From positions 1 through 45,943 of IMG/VR virus record IMGVR_UViG_3300042887_000455: 45,943 bases of DNA. The stretch is one strand, 5' to 3'. Both the position numbers and the translations under genes were made by a program. The stretch is from a virus. Positions 6,884-33,823 of the stretch are shown here, piece after piece (positions within the stretch are counted from its first letter, which is position 1; the number at the start of each line of letters is the position of its first letter). Under the pieces are notes generated by a model, which did no database searches, was not told the origin of the DNA, and saw only the letters and a list, made by a program, of their open reading frames with translations.

Positions 6884-6973
6884 TTTTCAATTTGTATAAA
6901 TAGTAATAGGTGTTACTCACGGTGTCTAGACCTAGTAACTCTAATCATTCTTCTATTAATTACAGGAACTAAT
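6884..6973 (+). promoter_or_regulatory. Late promoter and structured leader of the first homing endonuclease
   Basis: TATAAATA at 6895-6902 inside the shared block TTTTCAATTTGTATAAATAG. The leader then carries GTTACT...AGTAAC (pairing arms) and TAATAG...CTATTA, followed by AGGAA a few bases before the ATG at 6974. Almost the same leader precedes the HNH gene at 11169. Confidence 0.75.
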
Positions 6974-11080: not shown

Positions 11081-11168
11081 TTTTCAATTTGTATAAATAG
11101 TAATAAGTGTTACTCACGGACGGCAATCCTAGTAACTCTAATCATTCTTACAATAATCAAGGACTATT
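11081..11168 (+). promoter_or_regulatory. Late promoter and structured leader of the HNH gene
   Basis: The shared block TTTTCAATTTGTATAAATAG (11081-11100) is followed by GTGTTACTCACGG, a variable stretch and CCTAGTAACTCTAATCATTC, nearly as at 6884-6973. GTTACT and AGTAAC can pair. AAGGAC precedes the ATG at 11169. Confidence 0.75.
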
Positions 11169-12774: not shown

Positions 12775-12859
12775 CTCTTAGGGAGGGACTCGAACCCCCA
12801 TAACATTTCTGTATACGTTTGATTAACAGTCAAATCTCTTACCATTAGAGTACCTAAGA
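12775..12859 (-). tRNA. tRNA-Asn (anticodon GTT) with long variable region
   Basis: Acceptor TCTTAGG with CCTAAGA, D arm CTCT-AATGGTA-AGAG, anticodon arm TTTGA-CTGTTAA-TCAAA (GTT) and T arm GGGGG-TTCGAGT-CCCTC. The variable region is 18 nt, long for Asn. The acceptor stem continues outward by 7 more pairs (GCAGTGC 12769-12775 with GCACTGC 12860-12866). The 5' end overlaps the stop codon of the upstream endonuclease gene. Confidence 0.85.
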
Positions 12860-16161: not shown

Positions 16162-17214
16162 CTATAGAATTTCCTTGGCTTCTAAAAATAGACCTTTCAT
16201 AAAGGATTTAATTTTATCACGATTTGTATTATCAGCAACTGAATCTATATAGTTATTTAAAACTTCAGCAGTATCTTCAATACTTATTTGGGTTGTATCA
16301 ACAACCCCTTCTGAAAAGTCCGATAAATCTTCTAAAATTTTAATCTCATAGGTATTCGATTCATAAAGTTTCTTAAGGAACTGGTCGAACTTGTAGTAAT
16401 CTGTTTTCTTTACTACTACAATCTTTATATATTTTCGTTGAAACTGGGTAATATCAATAGTATCATAATCAACTAATTCATCATTGTATTCATGTCTAAT
16501 AAACATTGTATAAGGATTCTTAATAAATTCTGTTTGTCTTGTTTCGGTATCAAATATATGAAATCCTTTTTGGTCATTGTAATCCGACCAAGTCATCTCA
16601 TAAGGTGTTCCGACATAATGTATATTCTCTTTATCTGATTTTGTATGAAAATGACCAGAGTAAACTCCTTCATATTTGGCAAACAAGTTACCTGCTAATC
16701 CATCATGAGATTCCATACCCTTATACATTGAAAATCCTAGGATTTCAAAATGACCAAAACATAAATCAGATTTACTTTCTTTGATAAAATTAAAGGCATC
16801 TAATTCATTTTCTTTACAAATCCAAGGAATAATATCAATGGAAGTGTCATCAAACATAACTTTTGTTGGTTTGTCATACATAGTAATATTTGTAAACTCA
16901 CCTAGCAATAATCCAGTAGAATTTACCGATAAAGATTCACGGTAATACAAATCATGATTACCTAACAATGTATGAAGTTCAATACCAGCATCTTGTAAAG
17001 GTTGAAAGAAAAATCTTTTACTTTCTGCTAAGGTATTGAAGTTGATATATTTTCTTCTATCGAACATATCACCTAGTTGCCATACAACTTTTATATCGTT
17101 ATCTTTTAGGTAAGGAATAAAGATATTTGTATAAAAGTTATCCTGTAGAGCAAGGAAGTTAGGACTGTCATTCCTAACTCCATAATGAGTATCCCCAAGA
17201 ATTGCTATTTTCAT
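16162..17214 (-). CDS. 47: Recombination endonuclease subunit gp47 (Mre11/SbcD-like)
   Basis: A 350-residue calcineurin-like phosphoesterase nuclease. Metal-binding motifs are all present: GDTH (D8, H10), QLGDMFDRR (D49), GNHD (85-88), a histidine in FGHFE near 155, and SGHFH (186-190). It forms the nuclease part of the gp46/gp47 complex. Its ATG overlaps the gp55 stop in an ATGA arrangement, giving translational coupling. Confidence 0.97.
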   Translation of the reverse strand: MKIAILGDTHYGVRNDSPNFLALQDNFYTNIFIPYLKDNDIKVVWQLGDMFDRRKYINFNTLAESKRFFFQPLQDAGIELHTLLGNHDLYYRESLSVNSTGLLLGEFTNITMYDKPTKVMFDDTSIDIIPWICKENELDAFNFIKESKSDLCFGHFEILGFSMYKGMESHDGLAGNLFAKYEGVYSGHFHTKSDKENIHYVGTPYEMTWSDYNDQKGFHIFDTETRQTEFIKNPYTMFIRHEYNDELVDYDTIDITQFQRKYIKIVVVKKTDYYKFDQFLKKLYESNTYEIKILEDLSDFSEGVVDTTQISIEDTAEVLNNYIDSVADNTNRDKIKSFMKGLFLEAKEIL

Positions 17215-17744
17215 TCTGAAATCGCATCAAGTGTTTGACAAGTCATTACAACTTCTTTTGGAACTTTTACTTTTCTAACTGTATTAGGAAGTTCTGCATT
17301 ACTAAATTCTGCAAGAAATTCACGATATGAATTTACAAATTCTTGATCATCATCCTGTTCTTGAAGTTCAAAAACAATATTACCCACAGATTGTATAATC
17401 TTATGTTTAAGTTGATATTGTTGTTTTTCTTTGGCAATTCTTCTTAGGTATGCAAAGTATATGATTTGTGTATAATAGGAAAATGGATTAGATGATTTTT
17501 CAGGATTAAATTTATCGAAATACTTGATACAGTTTTCTATACCATCGCATATCATTTCATCTTTAAAGGAATAACCATTGAAGTTACCTTTATTAGCAAG
17601 GTTATTGGCAATCTTAAGAATACATTCACCAAGATAGTTCGAGATTTGAGGAATTGGTAATCCATTCTCTTCCGCTTTCTTTAAAAGTTCTTTTCTTTCA
17701 ACTATTGCTACAAAAAAATCTTTATTGGAAACATATTCAGCCAT
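17211..17744 (-). CDS. 55: Late-transcription sigma factor gp55
   Basis: A 177-residue sigma-family protein that directs host RNA polymerase to TATAAATA late promoters, with gp45 as activator in T4. Recognised from NLANKGNFNGYSFKDEMICDGIENCIKYFDKFNPEKSSNPFSY, split here as the KDEMICDGIENCIKYF helix and the NPFSYYTQIIYFAYLRRI helix, which match the sigma region 2 of T4 gp55 (YTQSWKQEMIADGIE...NPHAYITQACFNAFVQRI). The ATG at 17744 follows AGGTGA; a GTG three codons upstream is less likely. The many TATAAATA boxes in this window are its expected targets. It has an early-type promoter at 17776-17804. Confidence 0.92.
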   Translation of the reverse strand: MAEYVSNKDFFVAIVERKELLKKAEENGLPIPQISNYLGECILKIANNLANKGNFNGYSFKDEMICDGIENCIKYFDKFNPEKSSNPFSYYTQIIYFAYLRRIAKEKQQYQLKHKIIQSVGNIVFELQEQDDDQEFVNSYREFLAEFSNAELPNTVRKVKVPKEVVMTCQTLDAISE

Positions 17745-17775
17745 AACAATCACCTATTAATTTAACATATAATAT

Positions 17776-27368: not shown

Positions 27369-27376
27369 TATTTATA
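27369..27376 (-). promoter_or_regulatory. Late promoter for gene 19
   Basis: TATAAATA on the minus strand, overlapping the gp18 stop codon (27372-27374). Confidence 0.75.
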
Positions 27377-30300
27377 TGCCTAATTCTTCAAAACTTGCAC
27401 CAGTTTTGGCAGCAATGAAGTTTAGTGTAATAAAGTTGATAGATCTATTTGGTTTAATATAGATGTCAGCAATAAACTGGTTACTATCAATTACTTGAGG
27501 AGTATTATTAGATTCATCACATTTAACCATGAAGTCAGTAATACCTCTACGACCTTGAACATCTCTTAAATATGGTTCAACAATATTCTTGAATTGTGCT
27601 CTTGTAAATTGATCATTAAATTCAAATAATTGATATTTAGAAGCAGTTGATATTGCTTTTTCCAAAACAATAAACAATCTACGAACATTAATACGGTCAA
27701 AAGCACTAGGAGTTTTCAATAAAGTTTTGTCACCATAAAGAACAGTACCTTGTCCTGGGAACGTAACAATAGGATTAACGCCATTTTGATAAAGAATATC
27801 ACGTTGAGCTTCATTAGGATTAAATGCAACTTTAATGATATTTTTAACAACACCACGATTAAAACCACCTGGAGAGAACCAAGGATCAGCTACTTTATCA
27901 GTATTTGCACACAAACCAGCAGTATCACCGTTCATCGGAATCCAACGATATTTGTCGCTGTATTTGTCGTATTGATATTTCCAAGTTGAATCCATAACAC
28001 CATAAGAACTTGATACAATAGTATTTCTGTAGTTTGCTATTTGAGTAGCAATTACTGAAGAAGTACCAATTAATAATGGAGGTGAAATAAATGCAACACA
28101 ATCTTTACGTTTTTCTGCAACATTTTGAATTACATAATTAGCAACTGTAGCATTAACATTACCAACAGGTATTAATGAAATATCATATAAATCACTTTGT
28201 TGATAAAGATCATATGCTTCAGATAAATTACCATTAGATGTATGTGCTTTAATTGTATCAACACCACCAGATAATTGGCGAGTCAATACATTTGCAAGGT
28301 TTTTAAATGTATTATTAATAACAGAAGAACCAAAATTAACACCAGTATCTAGTAAATTAGTTACAGAAAATACATTAGTTATATTTTGACTAACAGTTAA
28401 AGAATTTACAACAGTAGGTGCTTTATTAGTTTTAAATGTAACTGCAAAAGGAACTAAATCCCAATTAGAAGCAGGTGTGAAAGATAAATAACCACCGTTA
28501 GAAATTGAAACGATACCTTTATTAGGAACAATAGCAACAGTTCCTGGATTATAATTAACAGGAACAGTTGAGAAAGTACCTGTTTCTGTAGCAACCCAAG
28601 CATGTGTAAAGTAAAAATTATCAGCATCTATAACAGTAATAAGATAAGTGCCATTATAATTAGTAGTTCCAGCAATTACTTGTGAAGAAGTTCCAACTAA
28701 TCCATGAGCAGTTGAAGTTGCTTTTACTGTTCCTGCTACTGTAGAATTATAATTAGCAAATGCAGAAATATCTTTACTACTTGGAGTAATTGCAAAAGAA
28801 GAAACAAATAATGAATCAACATCATCACCAGCAGGATGATCAGACCACCAAACCCAATTAGAAGAAGAATTGATTACATCTTTATAATAGTTATTTCTAC
28901 CACCTACTTTTCCATCATTACCTTTAGATAGACCAGCAAATTGTTCTATAACAGTTCCTGCAGGTGCAAGTTTACCAAGACTATCAACAACAACCATATG
29001 AATTTCGTCATTAGAACCGTTATTAGCAGCAGCAAATGCACTTGTTCCAGGAGCTTTATTAAATCTTGATTTATATTTCCATTCAACAGTAAAAGTTTCA
29101 TCAAAGATATTATATTGAGCAGGAGCTTTTAAGTAAGCAACAACAACATTTTCAACTGATTCAACAACACCAATTGTTTCATATACGATAGATGCATCTT
29201 CTTGAGGAACTCTTACTTTTAAAATATTATTGACTGTGATATCATAAACTTCAACATCATCTAATCTAACATAAAAAACTTTTTCAGATAATTCATATTG
29301 ATGATCTAAATCATTCCAATATTTGTATAAACCATCTATTTCGCCAACTTTATTAGCACCAACATAAACGTCAACATCACCAGCAACTAAACTTTGTGAT
29401 CTTAATACAGTTAATGCATCTGATACTAAAGTGATTTTGCGATAAGTTACAGTCGTGTCAACATGGTCAATTTCGCCGACTAATTTTTGTAAACCAGCAG
29501 TAGCAGTTCTAGCAATTTTACCAGCATCTAATTCAAAGGCAGATAAAGCAGAAGAAACACCTTCACCTATAATTCTAAGAACAATTAATTCTCTTTCATC
29601 TTCACGGTCTTCAACAGTATGTCTTGCAGATACTGTTCCAGTAGCAGGAGCTATCCAATTAGCAGAATCACATAATGAAACTGATAATGAATTACCTAAT
29701 TCACCAGCATATTTTGCAACAAATTCACCTTTACCAACAAGACCAGCTTCGCCAACCATATTAAAATAATGAGTAGAATTTTGAATTTTAACTGCATCAC
29801 CAACTACAGTAACAGTAGCAGATGCTTCAGTTGAAATTTCTGCAGGATCTTGAAGATCAGGTAATACTTCGATATAAATGTCAACTATTTGTGATTCTGT
29901 ATAACCAGAACCTCTGTTATTGATAATAATTTTAGAAATAGAACTAGCAGTTGATGTAAATGTTACTGAACCTAATTCTCCAGCAGAAGAAACAACAGAA
30001 CCTTCAATTGCATTATCAATTGTATTAACATAACCATTACCAGCATAAGTAATTGTAATACCTGTTATAGCACCACTACCACTTACAGTAGAAACTTCTG
30101 CAGTTGCTTGATCAAAAACTAAAACATTATTAACTAATGTTTTGATACTTGGTGCAGGTAAAGTAATAACATCACCTACAACATAACCTGTTCCTGCAGT
30201 AACGATAGCAGAAGCAGAAATTGGACCACCACTTAAAACAGCAGTAAAAACTGGAGAAGATCCATCAGCAGTTTCAGGAGTAGAAGCAAAAACTTTAGGA

Positions 30301-30644
30301 ACTGTTCTATAACCAGCACCACCATTAGTAACAGTAATTGTACTGATACCGCCAGTTTTAAGAGAAACAGCATTTCTACTTGGACCTGTATCAACACGAG
30401 TTACTAATAGGTTATTAGAATATGCTAAAAAATTGGTTGCGGTATAAAATGATTCAAAATTATTATCATCAGGAGCTCTAAAAGCATTTATTAATTCTCC
30501 TTGTGATGTTACTACTGTTGGTTGTAAAATTGGACCCCATTTGAAATTGCCTACCATTGCTCCTCTAGAAGCAGATACAGCAGGAACAATTTGGGTAAAA
30601 TCTTTTTCTACTACTTGTACGCCAGGACTTAATTGGATTGGCAT
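27372..30644 (-). CDS. 18: Tail sheath protein gp18, enlarged
   Basis: A 1090-residue contractile sheath protein; T4 gp18 has 659. The N-terminus, LSPGVQVVEKDFTQIVPAVS, and the C-terminal block, with FSPGGFNRGVVKN, PIVTFPGQGTVLYGDKTL, FDRINVRRLFIVLEKAI and FEFNDQFTRAQFKNIVEPYLRD, are typical gp18. The extra length lies in the outer part: repeats such as TVTNGGAGY, VTAGTGYVVGD, ITYAGNGYV and NNRGSGY at residues ~115-260, and a further inserted domain around 640-730. These would decorate the outside of the sheath. It is preceded by a late promoter at 30738-30745. Confidence 0.95.
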   Translation of the reverse strand: MPIQLSPGVQVVEKDFTQIVPAVSASRGAMVGNFKWGPILQPTVVTSQGELINAFRAPDDNNFESFYTATNFLAYSNNLLVTRVDTGPSRNAVSLKTGGISTITVTNGGAGYRTVPKVFASTPETADGSSPVFTAVLSGGPISASAIVTAGTGYVVGDVITLPAPSIKTLVNNVLVFDQATAEVSTVSGSGAITGITITYAGNGYVNTIDNAIEGSVVSSAGELGSVTFTSTASSISKIIINNRGSGYTESQIVDIYIEVLPDLQDPAEISTEASATVTVVGDAVKIQNSTHYFNMVGEAGLVGKGEFVAKYAGELGNSLSVSLCDSANWIAPATGTVSARHTVEDREDERELIVLRIIGEGVSSALSAFELDAGKIARTATAGLQKLVGEIDHVDTTVTYRKITLVSDALTVLRSQSLVAGDVDVYVGANKVGEIDGLYKYWNDLDHQYELSEKVFYVRLDDVEVYDITVNNILKVRVPQEDASIVYETIGVVESVENVVVAYLKAPAQYNIFDETFTVEWKYKSRFNKAPGTSAFAAANNGSNDEIHMVVVDSLGKLAPAGTVIEQFAGLSKGNDGKVGGRNNYYKDVINSSSNWVWWSDHPAGDDVDSLFVSSFAITPSSKDISAFANYNSTVAGTVKATSTAHGLVGTSSQVIAGTTNYNGTYLITVIDADNFYFTHAWVATETGTFSTVPVNYNPGTVAIVPNKGIVSISNGGYLSFTPASNWDLVPFAVTFKTNKAPTVVNSLTVSQNITNVFSVTNLLDTGVNFGSSVINNTFKNLANVLTRQLSGGVDTIKAHTSNGNLSEAYDLYQQSDLYDISLIPVGNVNATVANYVIQNVAEKRKDCVAFISPPLLIGTSSVIATQIANYRNTIVSSSYGVMDSTWKYQYDKYSDKYRWIPMNGDTAGLCANTDKVADPWFSPGGFNRGVVKNIIKVAFNPNEAQRDILYQNGVNPIVTFPGQGTVLYGDKTLLKTPSAFDRINVRRLFIVLEKAISTASKYQLFEFNDQFTRAQFKNIVEPYLRDVQGRRGITDFMVKCDESNNTPQVIDSNQFIADIYIKPNRSINFITLNFIAAKTGASFEELGI

Positions 30645-30758: not shown

Positions 30759-31853
30759 CTAAAAATTATAAAGCACCTCAGAATCTTGTCCATCATTATA
30801 AAAACCAAATGGAGTTAATTCATCTTCTATTTGTCTAATCTGATTTTGATAGATCATATGTCTAAGATCTACATTGTTTAATTCTTTAAAATAAGGTTGA
30901 GTTACTAACCAACCAAATAATACTAATGTCATAACTAAATCATCATGATAACCATTATCTGCTGCAAATGAACCTTTAACTTCTATAAATGTAGAAAGTT
31001 CAGATATAATATCTGCATCAGGTATCAATAATTTAGATTCTTCAATTAACATCTTAAGTGAAGAACATCCAATTCGTTTTACTTTCTTATCTGTTATGAT
31101 ACCTACTTGTGACTTTCCTGAACCAAATCCACCAGTAATAGTTTGTCCAGTCACACTTCTATTTATAAATAAAATGTTTTCATACTCTAATTCATTATAA
31201 AGAATGTATCCTACTTGTTCACCCACATTACCTTCAATAAGAATATTTGCACCATTATATTCCATTCCTACTTTATATATAACATTTGGAAATAATAATG
31301 GACTAATAGTATTATTTTTATATTTTGCAACAACTCTATATGGTGTTTCTGTTATATCAATTACTGTAAATGCAGAATAATCTCCACCTACACCTTTTGA
31401 TACATCAACAATCATTGCATAAACCCTATTAATCATAGGTCTTTCATATACATCTAAACTATCTTTAGAATAAATTATAGGGGATGCTGAAAGTCTGGCT
31501 AGTGCATCACTATTTATTAGTGTTGAAGATGAACCGAGGAAGTCGCAATTGTGTGATATTAATCCATCAGTTAGATATAAATTCCCATTAGATACATTAA
31601 TTGGATCATATACATCAACGATTCCGTTAGGAATAATATCTATGATTACCTTGTTAGATAAACTTTGTCCTATTTCCAAACAAGATGTTGTTATCTCTAT
31701 ATCATCATAGACAAACTTATGGTTTGGTGTTGTGACTATATTAGTATCGTCTGAAAATAATATTTTAATAGTTTCTTTGTTATTTTTAACAATACCTTCA
31801 AATCCTTGAAATCCAGATGGCGTTAAAATTTCAAATCTATTATTTTGTCTCAT
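30759..31853 (-). CDS. 17: C-intein fused to the C-terminal half of large terminase gp17
   Basis: A 364-residue precursor. Residues 1-102 are the C-terminal part of a split intein and residues 103-364 are the nuclease half of the terminase. The terminase part starts CDFLGSSSTLIN, the segment that in unbroken gp17 follows the end of the ATPase domain. RNase H-fold nuclease acids are present: IVDVSKGVGGD (D150, D158), ILIEGN (E207) and HDDL (D304, D305), the counterparts of T4 D401, E458 and D542. It should become functional only after trans-splicing to the product of 32753-33637. Its ATG overlaps the TGA of the homing endonuclease gene, so the two are translationally coupled. Confidence 0.93.
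   Translation of the reverse strand: MRQNNRFEILTPSGFQGFEGIVKNNKETIKILFSDDTNIVTTPNHKFVYDDIEITTSCLEIGQSLSNKVIIDIIPNGIVDVYDPINVSNGNLYLTDGLISHNCDFLGSSSTLINSDALARLSASPIIYSKDSLDVYERPMINRVYAMIVDVSKGVGGDYSAFTVIDITETPYRVVAKYKNNTISPLLFPNVIYKVGMEYNGANILIEGNVGEQVGYILYNELEYENILFINRSVTGQTITGGFGSGKSQVGIITDKKVKRIGCSSLKMLIEESKLLIPDADIISELSTFIEVKGSFAADNGYHDDLVMTLVLFGWLVTQPYFKELNNVDLRHMIYQNQIRQIEDELTPFGFYNDGQDSEVLYNF
31548..31853 (-). other. C-terminal split intein segment (IntC, 102 aa)
   Basis: Contains the intein block B TxxH pattern (TTPNHKF near residue 45), block F (VDVYDPINV near 80) and block G ending LISHN, followed by Cys as the +1 residue. The terminal His-Asn and +1 Cys are those needed for branch resolution. 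The whole closely resembles the AceL-TerL C-intein as I recall it, in which the N-part is short and the C-part is about 104 residues. Confidence 0.93.
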
Positions 31854-32698
31854 AATTTATCCATAAGTAAAATTTTCCTATCTAATACGTTTAGAATAGT
31901 TTTAGATGTAACTCCAAATTCTACACAATATACTTTAGCAAACGCATTTTTATAATGAAAAAATTTACCATTCTTAGCAATATAATCATATGGTATATGA
32001 AGCAATGGTACAGTATCATATAAATCTAATATTTTTTTATATAATTGAAGCCTTATATTTTGTGTTTCTTCTGTTAGATTAATATTATTACCCTTTCTGA
32101 TATTAGATTGCAATAGTTTAGTTTCATTGCTAACATTTCTTCCTCTAAGTTTTATATTAGGAACACCTTTTTTAGCAGCACTAATCTTATCACCAGTCTC
32201 TTTAGGTCTTTTCATTCCAGTATGAAGATTTAACTCTTTGGGTAAATTTAATGCCCAATGACAAGCACTAGAAATCTTCTTTTGCTCTTCTGTATATTTT
32301 CTACCCTTTGAGATAGAAACCCATTCTCCTCCCATAACTTCGATAGCATCTGTTTTTAGTTGCCTAACTTCATTGGTAACGACATTTCTATATGAAGCCT
32401 TTCCTTTATTGGTTCCCTTTGGAGAACCGCCACCTATACCATTTTCTGGTATTTTATTAGCCCACTCATCAGATTCTACAATATCAAATTTTTTAGAAAA
32501 CCACAAACAAAATCTAGTACAAACATCTTGGCGTTCAAATTCCCAAATTTGTAAATTTATTACATATTTGCCATTTTCAGATAAGTGTTTCTTCCAATCA
32601 ACACCACTACCGTTATATTTTTCAGGGTTTTTCTTAGTTTTACAAAAATATTTTAATTTTGTATTTGTATGTTGTTTAACACAAATATATATAGACAT
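31850..32698 (-). CDS. GIY-YIG homing endonuclease inside the fractured terminase locus
   Basis: A 282-residue free-standing enzyme between the two terminase halves. The N-terminal GIY-YIG core reads YICVKQHTNTKLKYFCKT then YNGSGVDWKKHLSENG, related to the enzyme at 12854 (LKYFGKT, YKGSGKYWTRH). The Gly of the second motif is Cys here. IVESDEWANKIPENGIGGG is the likely catalytic Glu segment. Then comes the module NKGKASYRNV...GGEWVSISKGR, also present twice in the HNH enzyme at 11169, a NUMOD3-like HTGMKRPKETGDKISAAKKG, and a C-terminal region with a helix-turn-helix look. AAGGAAG precedes the ATG at 32698. Fractured intein genes with an endonuclease gene between the halves are known from metagenomes. 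Confidence 0.88.
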   Translation of the reverse strand: MSIYICVKQHTNTKLKYFCKTKKNPEKYNGSGVDWKKHLSENGKYVINLQIWEFERQDVCTRFCLWFSKKFDIVESDEWANKIPENGIGGGSPKGTNKGKASYRNVVTNEVRQLKTDAIEVMGGEWVSISKGRKYTEEQKKISSACHWALNLPKELNLHTGMKRPKETGDKISAAKKGVPNIKLRGRNVSNETKLLQSNIRKGNNINLTEETQNIRLQLYKKILDLYDTVPLLHIPYDYIAKNGKFFHYKNAFAKVYCVEFGVTSKTILNVLDRKILLMDKL

Positions 32699-32752
32699 GC
32701 TGTTCTTCCTTCTAAGAATAGTTCTGATGGATGTTGACGCATCGCGATCAGT

Positions 32753-33637
32753 TTAATTTATTAAATTATATGCTTCTTCTATAGTCGTATTTATAATATT
32801 CCCAGTTAATATATCCCTTATAGTAATCTGAGTTTTTCCTCCAACACACAAAATTTCCTGTGTGAATTTGAGGTCACCAAGTAGTTCTTTTTGTTGTGCT
32901 GCCCATGCTTCATCTCTACTGGGATGTTCCCAATAATTTACTCTAACAGGAACAAACCCATTTATATTTTGTTCTGCTTCATTCCAAAACTTCCAAAAAT
33001 GATTGTATCCAAGTGGAGTAGACGTTAGAATAATCTTAGTAGTTTTACCAGAAGAAATTGTAGGATAGGTAGATGTAAAGAAATCTTCAGCAACATTATT
33101 GGGAATGATTGAAGTTTCATCTATATAAAGTACATTTACAGATTTACCACGAATACCAGATGCGGAAGTAGCAGATGTAAATACTTTTGAACCATTTTCT
33201 AATTCAATATCGCCCTTGTTCCAAGTTTTAACTCCTTGTTGAAGAAAACTTGGAAGATATTCATACATTAATTGATAACGAGATAAAATTTCTCTTGCAG
33301 CAACTGCCTTATTAGCAAGAATTGCAACAGTTTTATTATCATTGAACAATGTATAATAAAGAAGATAAGCAGCAACAACTTGTGTTTTACCACTTTGCCG
33401 AGGTTGCATTGATACAACACGATTTTCTTTATGGATTGTAGATATAAATCTTTCTTGATAATCAAATAAATGAAAATCAATAAGACCTAAATCTAAAGAA
33501 ATAATTTTACAATAATTTCTAATAAAGTAAATTGGATCATTCTTACATAAAATATATTCGGCAACCTGATCCTTAGTAAACTGAATAGGAGTATTGGTTG
33601 CCTTTAAATTTATGTTTGCATTATAAAATAAACTCAT
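32753..33637 (-). CDS. 17: N-terminal half of large terminase gp17 fused to an N-intein
   Basis: A 294-residue precursor. Residues 1-263 are the packaging ATPase domain: MQPRQSGKTQ (Walker A, 79-85), an adenine-binding and coupling region, VLYIDETSIIPN (Walker B and catalytic Glu, 172-174) and ILTSTPLGYNHFWKFW (motif III-type). It ends LKFTQEIL, where intact terminases continue into the C(D/E)FLGSS segment. Residues 264-294 are a short N-intein beginning with Cys. Joined to the C-half without inteins, the product is 525 residues, a normal size for gp17 of such phages. No separate full-length copy of terminase is present in the window. Confidence 0.95.
   Translation of the reverse strand: MSLFYNANINLKATNTPIQFTKDQVAEYILCKNDPIYFIRNYCKIISLDLGLIDFHLFDYQERFISTIHKENRVVSMQPRQSGKTQVVAAYLLYYTLFNDNKTVAILANKAVAAREILSRYQLMYEYLPSFLQQGVKTWNKGDIELENGSKVFTSATSASGIRGKSVNVLYIDETSIIPNNVAEDFFTSTYPTISSGKTTKIILTSTPLGYNHFWKFWNEAEQNINGFVPVRVNYWEHPSRDEAWAAQQKELLGDLKFTQEILCVGGKTQITIRDILTGNIINTTIEEAYNLIN
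32756..32848 (-). other. N-terminal split intein segment (IntN, 31 aa)
   Basis: Begins with Cys1 directly after LKFTQEIL and holds CVGGKTQITIRD, the block A pattern, then TIEEAYNLIN before the stop. It is unusually short; classical split inteins have about 100 residues on the N side. The split just after block A is the atypical type seen in AceL-TerL. Confidence 0.92.
32788..32795 (-). promoter_or_regulatory. Late-promoter box inside the N-intein coding region
   Basis: TATAAATACGACTATAG on the minus strand, about 90 nt before the endonuclease start. It could give late transcription of the endonuclease and the C-half. Confidence 0.5.
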
Positions 33638-33823
33638 TTACGTTTTTGGTTTTAGTTTTCTCATAACTTTAGTAATAGCCAAACTTGAACCTGATAACCT
33701 TTTTTTAACTTTTTCAGTATTATCAGTATCCATTAGTTTTTTTCTTTCTTCAGCACTCTTATCAATATACTTGTTTAGAGTTCCTTTCGATAATTCTATT
33801 AGAAAATCCTTAAATGTTATCAT
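33638..33823 (-). CDS. Small basic protein before the terminase (61 aa)
   Basis: A 61-residue basic protein beginning MITFKDFLIELSKGTLNKYI, a start seen in many short phage proteins, and ending VMRKLKPKT. It directly abuts the terminase N-half. The position is that of gp16, the small terminase subunit of T4, but it is much shorter (gp16 has 164 residues) and shows no recognisable DNA-binding domain, so I do not call it gp16. It follows the 62-bp regulatory repeat, which should drive it together with the terminase. Confidence 0.7.
   Translation of the reverse strand: MITFKDFLIELSKGTLNKYIDKSAEERKKLMDTDNTEKVKKRLSGSSLAITKVMRKLKPKT

What the first reader, a model, noticed from the sequence alone, without database searches (positions are those of the whole stretch)
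31850..32755. Endonuclease gene sits exactly at the intein break, with a late promoter hidden in the N-intein
The GIY-YIG gene fills the gap between the intein halves. A TATAAATA box lies within the IntN codons (32788-32795), and the endonuclease stop overlaps the C-half start (ATGA). So C-half expression appears tied to translation of the mobile gene, making the endonuclease hard to lose. Its GIY-YIG core has Cys where the relative at 12854 has Gly, so its nuclease may be altered.
Basis: partly seen in the sequence, partly recalled or inferred. Interest (0 to 1): 0.65.

Follow-up and report, generated by a model that had tools for sequence, protein, structure and literature searches.

The report
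Nuclease gene inside a broken terminase
In this phage the gene for its DNA-packaging motor is cut in two by a nuclease gene, the halves are probably rejoined as proteins by a split intein, and relatives suggest that the nuclease gene carries its own late promoter and ends inside the start of the second half, yet can still be lost.

Summary
On the minus strand the T4-type large terminase gene is broken into an N-half ending in a 31-aa IntN and a C-half starting with a 102-aa IntC (AceL/GOS/Cat-TerL kind). A 282-aa nuclease-like gene fills the break; its stop overlaps the C-half start (ATGA), and TATAAATA lies in IntN codons. In the window alone the box could be chance. Relatives make it credible: 62 of 70 non-redundant nuclease-bearing loci have TATAAATA within 120 nt upstream of the nuclease start, against 0 of 12 other split loci upstream of IntC, and the window's IntN codons are conserved at silent sites. 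All 70 nuclease stops lie from 28 nt inside to 1 nt before the IntC start, usually without a Shine-Dalgarno, so coupling is likely. 'Hard to lose' fails: 10 distinct split loci lack the nuclease, and a contiguous intein keeps a nuclease scar. The Cys is real but marks a subfamily in which Gly19>Cys goes with loss of Tyr6 (56 of 56). Verdict: a fractured gene of a known kind, with a recurrent promoter-nuclease-overlap design that was lost repeatedly.

The parts
32849..33637 (-). TerL N-extein (263 codons)
   Evidence: ORF; PHROG terminase large subunit E 1.7e-60
32753..32848 (-). IntN, 31 codons from Cys1, plus stop
   Evidence: ORF; aligned with relatives
32788..32795 (-). TATAAATA, predicted T4-type late promoter box inside IntN codons
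   Evidence: same place in L012 and L325; silent-site conservation
32707..32711 (-). AAGGA, Shine-Dalgarno 8 nt before the nuclease start
31850..32698 (-). GIY-YIG-fold nuclease-like gene, 282 aa, in the intein break
   Evidence: ORF; PHROG homing endonuclease, weak, E 0.0025; model and I-TevI match
32429..32698 (-). N-terminal GIY-YIG-fold domain, residues 1-90, with Cys6 and Cys19
   Evidence: pLDDT about 97; 1mk0 Z 9.0, 86 residues, rmsd 2.8
31853..32098 (-). C-terminal helical domain shared by TerL-intein nucleases with different heads; modelled stretch, profile match residues 213-275
   Evidence: i-E 5.2e-9 against 42 proteins; model pLDDT 86; weak HTH matches, Z under 4
31850..31853 (-). 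ATGA: nuclease stop overlapping the IntC start
31548..31853 (-). IntC, 102 codons ending His-Asn
   Evidence: 6dsl CatC E 6.4e-14
30759..31547 (-). TerL C-extein from Cys+1, plus stop
17211..17753 (-). gp55-like late sigma factor, expected to read TATAAATA boxes
   Evidence: phrog_234 late sigma factor E 9.4e-50

Best explanation
This is a fractured terminase gene. A homing-nuclease cassette sits in the loop between IntN and IntC of an atypical TerL intein. The N-half is made from the long late message. The box in IntN (inferred promoter for the gp55-like sigma) starts a further late message with the nuclease and the C-half. Ribosomes start the nuclease at its own Shine-Dalgarno; the C-half, which has none, is started by ribosomes that end the nuclease at ATGA (inferred from geometry and its conservation). 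IntN and IntC join the halves (inferred from homology). The nuclease spreads the cassette (inferred from fold and patchy distribution). Selection keeps the C-half start coupled to an upstream stop; the nuclease itself can be deleted or its head replaced.
For: Anatomy. Overlap of nuclease stop and IntC start, -28 to +1 nt, in 70 of 70 non-redundant nuclease-bearing loci, 13 of 13 clusters at 50% identity, and at five junctions in terminases broken at other sites or twice. Shine-Dalgarno at IntC starts 8 of 31 against 100 of 145 other ORFs, p 1.2e-5. TATAAATA 62 of 70, 9 of 13 clusters; 0 of the first 31 loci have it reverse-oriented. Silent-site conservation in IntN. Late sigma present. Fold match to I-TevI. 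In two phages the nuclease is fused in frame to one intein half (VP-1 to IntN; Va1 to IntC).
Against: No transcript, protein or splicing data. 55 of the 70 loci are one nuclease clade, so cluster counts (13) are the fair sample. The nuclease choice required a stop within 60 nt of the IntC start; one search had no such limit and agrees, and the 12 left over were read singly. 4 of 13 clusters lack the exact box. In many relatives the box starts 13-25 nt before the nuclease ATG, which would give near-leaderless messages. L261 has a nonsense codon in its nuclease gene with an intact C-half. The window's ATGA region shows no unusual fold (z -0.28). TerL N-half starts also rarely have a Shine-Dalgarno (8 of 36).
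Confidence: 0.68

Rival explanations
1. The C-half starts on its own. The overlap is only a by-product of a nuclease gene inserted into intein coding DNA, where its frame runs to the first stop.
For: Overlaps vary in length (-28 to +1), as an insertion would give. 8 of 31 IntC starts do have a short Shine-Dalgarno. L261 tolerates a closed nuclease frame. L047 has a 203-nt gap with AAGGA 6 nt before the start.
Against: Nuclease-less alleles have a close stop-start pair in 8 of 10 cases; L021 keeps a 54-aa remnant that bridges its gap.
Confidence: 0.25
2. The window's TATAAATA is a chance word in AT-rich IntN codons; the nuclease and C-half come only from the long late message.
For: Window-wide enrichment is weak (16 against 10.2). 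The box lacks the TTTTCAATTT element of 4 others. Nuclease-free L009 has a TATAAATA elsewhere in its intein, so such words do arise there without a nuclease.
Against: Same box at the same place in L012 and L325. Silent-site conservation in IntN, not in the nuclease or exteins; L012 and L325 agree in IntN, so this is one comparison. Strong box-nuclease association in relatives.
Confidence: 0.3
3. The nuclease is dead and its ORF is kept only because its translation feeds the C-half.
For: Tyr6 and Gly19, near-invariant in the first set of relatives, are both Cys. Weak PHROG match only.
Against: Cys19 without Tyr6 is a subfamily of 56 distinct proteins; in the 14 with Cys at both places the other conserved positions are kept, which does not look like decay.
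Confidence: 0.2

Closest known systems
AceL-TerL, GOS-TerL and Cat-TerL atypical split inteins
   Same: Same host protein, short IntN (31 aa here; 25, 37 and 30 aa in PMC11766414, passages read), IntC of 102 aa against 104, 115 and 104; match to 6dsl CatC
   Different: A nuclease gene lies between the halves here. L026, which fits the AceL letters as I recall them, has none and a 1-nt overlap of the halves
Fractured genes with split inteins and free-standing homing endonucleases (Dassa et al. 2009; paper not held, recalled)
   Same: Gene broken inside an intein, free-standing nuclease gene between
   Different: GIY-YIG-fold nuclease instead of the EDxHD kind (recalled); promoter and overlap design described here
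T4 intron nucleases I-TevI, -II, -III (PMC2988022, passages and section 9 read)
   Same: Nuclease inside the interrupted gene with a middle or late promoter of its own; GIY-YIG fold for I-TevI
   Different: Intein, not intron; no RBS-sequestering hairpin found in the window
T4 segG and other nuclease genes holding promoters of essential neighbours (PMC2988022, section 9)
   Same: Nuclease tied to expression of an essential gene; that paper argues this favours retention
   Different: Here the tie is also translational (inferred), and natural losses are seen

Membership tests
Atypical TerL split intein | Short IntN with Cys or Ser at position 1 | tested here: met
   31 aa, Cys1
Atypical TerL split intein | IntC homologous to Cat/AceL-TerL, ending His-Asn before Cys+1 | tested here: met
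   6dsl E 6.4e-14; SHN|CDFLGSS
Atypical TerL split intein | Splices in trans | not testable with these tools
   needs a bench test
Fractured gene with intervening nuclease | Separate nuclease ORF between the intein halves | tested here: met
GIY-YIG nuclease | GIY-YIG fold | tested here: met
   AF2 model residues 1-90; I-TevI 1mk0 Z 9.0, rmsd 2.8, 86 aligned; 1ln0 Z 8.5
GIY-YIG nuclease | Pfam PF01541 score | tested here: not met
   no match; L012, with the usual motif, also has none
GIY-YIG nuclease | Tyr of the first motif and Gly of the second | tested here: not met
   Cys6 and Cys19; Tyr17 kept. So it is called GIY-YIG-fold, not a canonical member
GIY-YIG nuclease | Site-specific cleavage and homing | not testable with these tools
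   needs a bench test
T4-type late promoter | Exact TATAAATA in transcript orientation, with a gp55-type sigma in the genome | tested here: met
T4-type late promoter | Transcript start 3' of the box | not testable with these tools
   needs 5'-end mapping
I-TevI-like self-operator | Copy of the homing site next to the promoter | tested here: not met
   window locus (read as its twin L001): best match to the C-extein start no better than shuffles (55 of 100 as good); offset 0 ranks 130 of 390. Present in another nuclease clade

The most novel reading that the evidence does not exclude
A modular homing cassette: a late promoter that may itself supply the IntN stop codon, an interchangeable nuclease head (several GIY-YIG kinds, HNH), a shared C-terminal domain found so far only next to TerL IntC, and a 3' end laid over the IntC start. 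Its deletion leaves free split inteins of the AceL kind, or re-fuses the intein with a nuclease scar, so fracture is a reversible stage of an intein life cycle.
Probability: 0.45. Interest if true: 0.75.

Novelty: new variant of a known kind. Interest (0 to 1): 0.58.

Why it matters
It suggests how a mobile nuclease gene can break an essential phage gene without stopping its expression, and gives natural alleles (with the nuclease, deleted, fused, re-fused) with which the question of why split inteins exist becomes testable. It also offers an origin for AceL-type split inteins used as laboratory tools, as deletion products of such cassettes, and a candidate active-site variant of the GIY-YIG fold.

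Tried and rejected
RNA folds around the nuclease start and around ATGA: no convincing sequestering hairpin (best z -2.17 over 32650-32760; -0.28 at ATGA).

Window search for a copy of the intein insertion site near the box: none.

Foldseek of the whole nuclease model against PDB: nothing under E 0.001; the second aligner found I-TevI. C-domain alone: only weak HTH matches, Z under 4, so its fold is undecided. Its Pfam scan gave no convincing family. A defence-library scan of the nuclease gave nothing.

The C-domain context scan returned only TerL loci (77 of 80 with IntC right after; in the other 3 the contig ends within 100 nt or the profile hit lay elsewhere), but these are close relatives of one clade, so it is a weak test of site specificity. 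The same tail as a query found nothing in the named phage collection. The scan with the window's own C-domain gave 8 loci; 7 are contigs already in the TerL set and the eighth, L325, is a TerL locus too.

Literature: I did not see this design in the listings, but the key 2009 paper is not held, so I make no claim that it is unpublished.

Rows dropped: L005, L006, L007, L008, L035, L055 and L057 were left out of the split-locus counts (fusions, other sites, partial, three-piece); so were duplicates by sequence key. Five rows of unknown state in the tree were not counted. L058 was set aside because its IntN ORF runs on for about 126 aa of unknown kind.

Full report
What is there. On the minus strand lies a T4-type terminase gene in two pieces. 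The first ends in IntN (31 aa, Cys1). The second starts with IntC (102 aa, ending His-Asn before Cys+1), and IntC matches the solved consensus TerL intein CatC at E 6.4e-14. Between them is a 282-aa ORF, 54 nt after the IntN stop, with AAGGA 8 nt before its start. Its last four bases, ATGA, include the C-half start. TATAAATA lies in the IntN codons. The phage is of T4 type: the window has a gp55-like late sigma factor (phrog_234, E 9.4e-50) and the sliding clamp.

Is the box real? In the window alone this cannot be said: 16 boxes against 10.2 +/- 3.1 expected, 7 of 100 shuffles as many. On the minus strand 9 of 12 boxes are at least partly intergenic, and TATAAATA is the commonest of its 56 letter permutations. 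I fetched relatives of the IntC from IMG/VR (301 relatives, the best 80 kept). Among 31 non-redundant nuclease-bearing split loci, 25 have TATAAATA within 120 nt upstream of the nuclease start; 0.65 were expected from each locus's own density, the median of the 56 permutations is 1, and the reverse orientation gives 0. Among 10 split loci without the nuclease, 0 have it upstream of IntC. With more loci the numbers are 62 of 70 and 0 of 12; two of these 12 are special, L058 (unclear ORF) and L261 (broken nuclease gene, which does keep a box in front of it). L047, a nuclease-less locus, keeps a box 11 nt after the IntN stop, some 190 nt from IntC. By nuclease cluster (50% identity) 9 of 13 have the box, 5 of 8 at 35%. 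In four loci the IntN stop TAA lies inside the box. The window's box has the same place in IntN as those of L012 and L325. Codons for shared residues are identical in 19 of 21 IntN positions against L012; elsewhere the fractions are 0.61 (N-extein), 0.52 (nuclease), 0.62 (IntC) and 0.59 (C-extein), Fisher p 0.003. The nuclease gene being the least conserved argues against recent transfer of the whole cassette as the cause. L325 gives p 0.0006 but agrees with L012 in IntN, so it is not independent.

Is the C-half coupled? In all 70 non-redundant nuclease-bearing loci the nuclease stop lies between 28 nt inside and 1 nt before the IntC start; 52 of them have -8, nearly all one clade, but all 13 clusters agree. 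The choice of ORF required a near stop, without that limit, agrees. IntC starts have a core Shine-Dalgarno in 8 of 31 loci, against 100 of 145 other ORFs of at least 120 aa in the same loci (p 1.2e-5); nuclease starts have it in 6 of 31 and TerL N-half starts in 8 of 36, so rarity is not unique to IntC. The same overlap occurs at five junctions where terminases are broken at other sites or more than once (L024, L052 twice, L057, L325: 4 to 25 nt). Two named phages go further: in Vibrio VP-1 the nuclease is fused to IntN, in Vibrio Va1 to IntC.

Can the nuclease be lost? Yes. Ten distinct split loci have none: L020, L021 (a 54-aa remnant), L023, L026, L034, L041, L043, L047, L066 and L071. L070 and L071 have flanks identical in 666 of 666 positions around a clean 587-nt difference, 99.7% over 1977 nt and 99.0% over 880 nt, and L073 from a second sample has the same junction. 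L041 keeps, in its gap, codons that read as the last residues of an L053-type nuclease. L032 is a contiguous intein whose linker, read in another frame, gives KIVEKKSWTNV-stop, against KIVEKKSWHNV-stop in the nuclease of L025. So halves have been re-fused after loss. In 8 of the 10 losses the IntN stop lies -26 to +32 nt from the IntC start; L021 bridges its gap with the remnant, L047 has a Shine-Dalgarno. On a tree of 57 C-halves (52 with known state) the presence of the nuclease changes at least 14 times; the count does not separate gain from loss. Six distinct contiguous inteins are in that tree, among them L009, the closest IntC to the window's apart from its twin L001 (65%). L026 looks like AceL-TerL as I recall its sequence, which would make that laboratory tool a deletion product; the identity rests on memory, and 6dsl is only its nearest solved relative (E 1e-39).

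The nuclease. Residues 1-90 are modelled with pLDDT about 97; the best solved match is the I-TevI catalytic domain (1mk0 Z 9.0, rmsd 2.8, 86 aligned). Pfam GIY-YIG does not match the sequence. At the Tyr of the first motif and the Gly of the second (positions 6 and 19; naming by the I-TevI motif is recalled) the window has Cys and Cys. Among 110 distinct relatives the pairs are Tyr/Gly 53, Leu/Cys 33, Cys/Cys 14, Met/Cys 8, Ile/Cys 1, Cys/Gly 1 and Tyr/Cys 0. One scan was aimed at the Cys forms, so the shares are biased, but one pattern of each scan left position 6 free, so the pairing was not forced. The change is thus a subfamily trait; whether these proteins cut DNA is unknown.

A shared tail. 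A profile of the last 78 residues of one nuclease clade finds the same domain at the end of the window's nuclease (i-E 5.2e-9 against 42 proteins) and of nucleases with other heads, including an HNH-like one (L078, head named by eye); no significant match in L002, L024, L028, L036, L005, L055 and the window's three other nuclease genes. It is modelled at pLDDT 86 with weak HTH matches only. I infer that it helps to find the target.

How it most likely works: see Best explanation. Shown: anatomy, overlap, association of the box with the nuclease, natural losses. Inferred: transcript start, reinitiation, splicing, homing.

What was known. T4 intron nucleases have middle or late promoters inside the interrupted genes, and nuclease genes that hold promoters of essential neighbours are said to be favoured for retention (PMC2988022, passages and section 9). 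Atypical TerL split inteins and their IntN lengths are in PMC11766414 and PMC13014065 (passages). PMC10448857 was seen in passages and PMC3229294 in one passage. Fractured genes date from 2009 (not held; recalled). I therefore class this as a new variant of a known kind.

Noticed in passing
L325 122-4327; L024 108-4508; L052 834-5616; L274 502-3935; L057 80-3606: Terminases in three pieces with two split inteins, mostly with a nuclease gene in each break, so two trans-splicing steps would be needed for one motor protein. In L021 and L058 the middle piece also starts with an IntC, but the N piece was not seen.
   Followed up: partly
55-locus GIY-YIG clade (for example L025, L038, L059, L061), L045, L049: A 14-16 nt copy of the C-extein start (the intein insertion site, CEFLG codons) lies beside the nuclease's late box; in the big clade and L045 offset 0 ranks first of 390, in L049 second. 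This recalls I-TevI, whose operator resembles its homing site (PMC2988022). The other 10 of 13 clusters, the window's included, do not show it at rank 1 or 2.
   Followed up: partly
window 30756-30738 (-), 13629-13611 (-), 6884-6902 (+), 11081-11099 (+): Extended late box TTTTCAATTTRTATAAATA upstream of the tail sheath gene and of three homing nuclease genes.
   Followed up: no
L261, between the intein halves: Nuclease gene with an in-frame TAG and an intact C-half: a natural nonsense mutant.
   Followed up: no
window 27372-30644 (-): Tail sheath protein of 1090 aa, against 571 and 631 aa in L003 and VP-1; the sheath profile is matched across a long insertion.
   Followed up: no
window 33638-33823 (-): A 61-aa ORF sits where T4-like phages have the small terminase gene (order recalled) and has no PHROG match.
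   Followed up: no
L008 (Campylobacter phage F341) 1489-2817: Terminase C-half with an IntC at another site and no nuclease before it; the genes upstream are a neck protein and a hypothetical, so the N-half must lie elsewhere.
   Followed up: no
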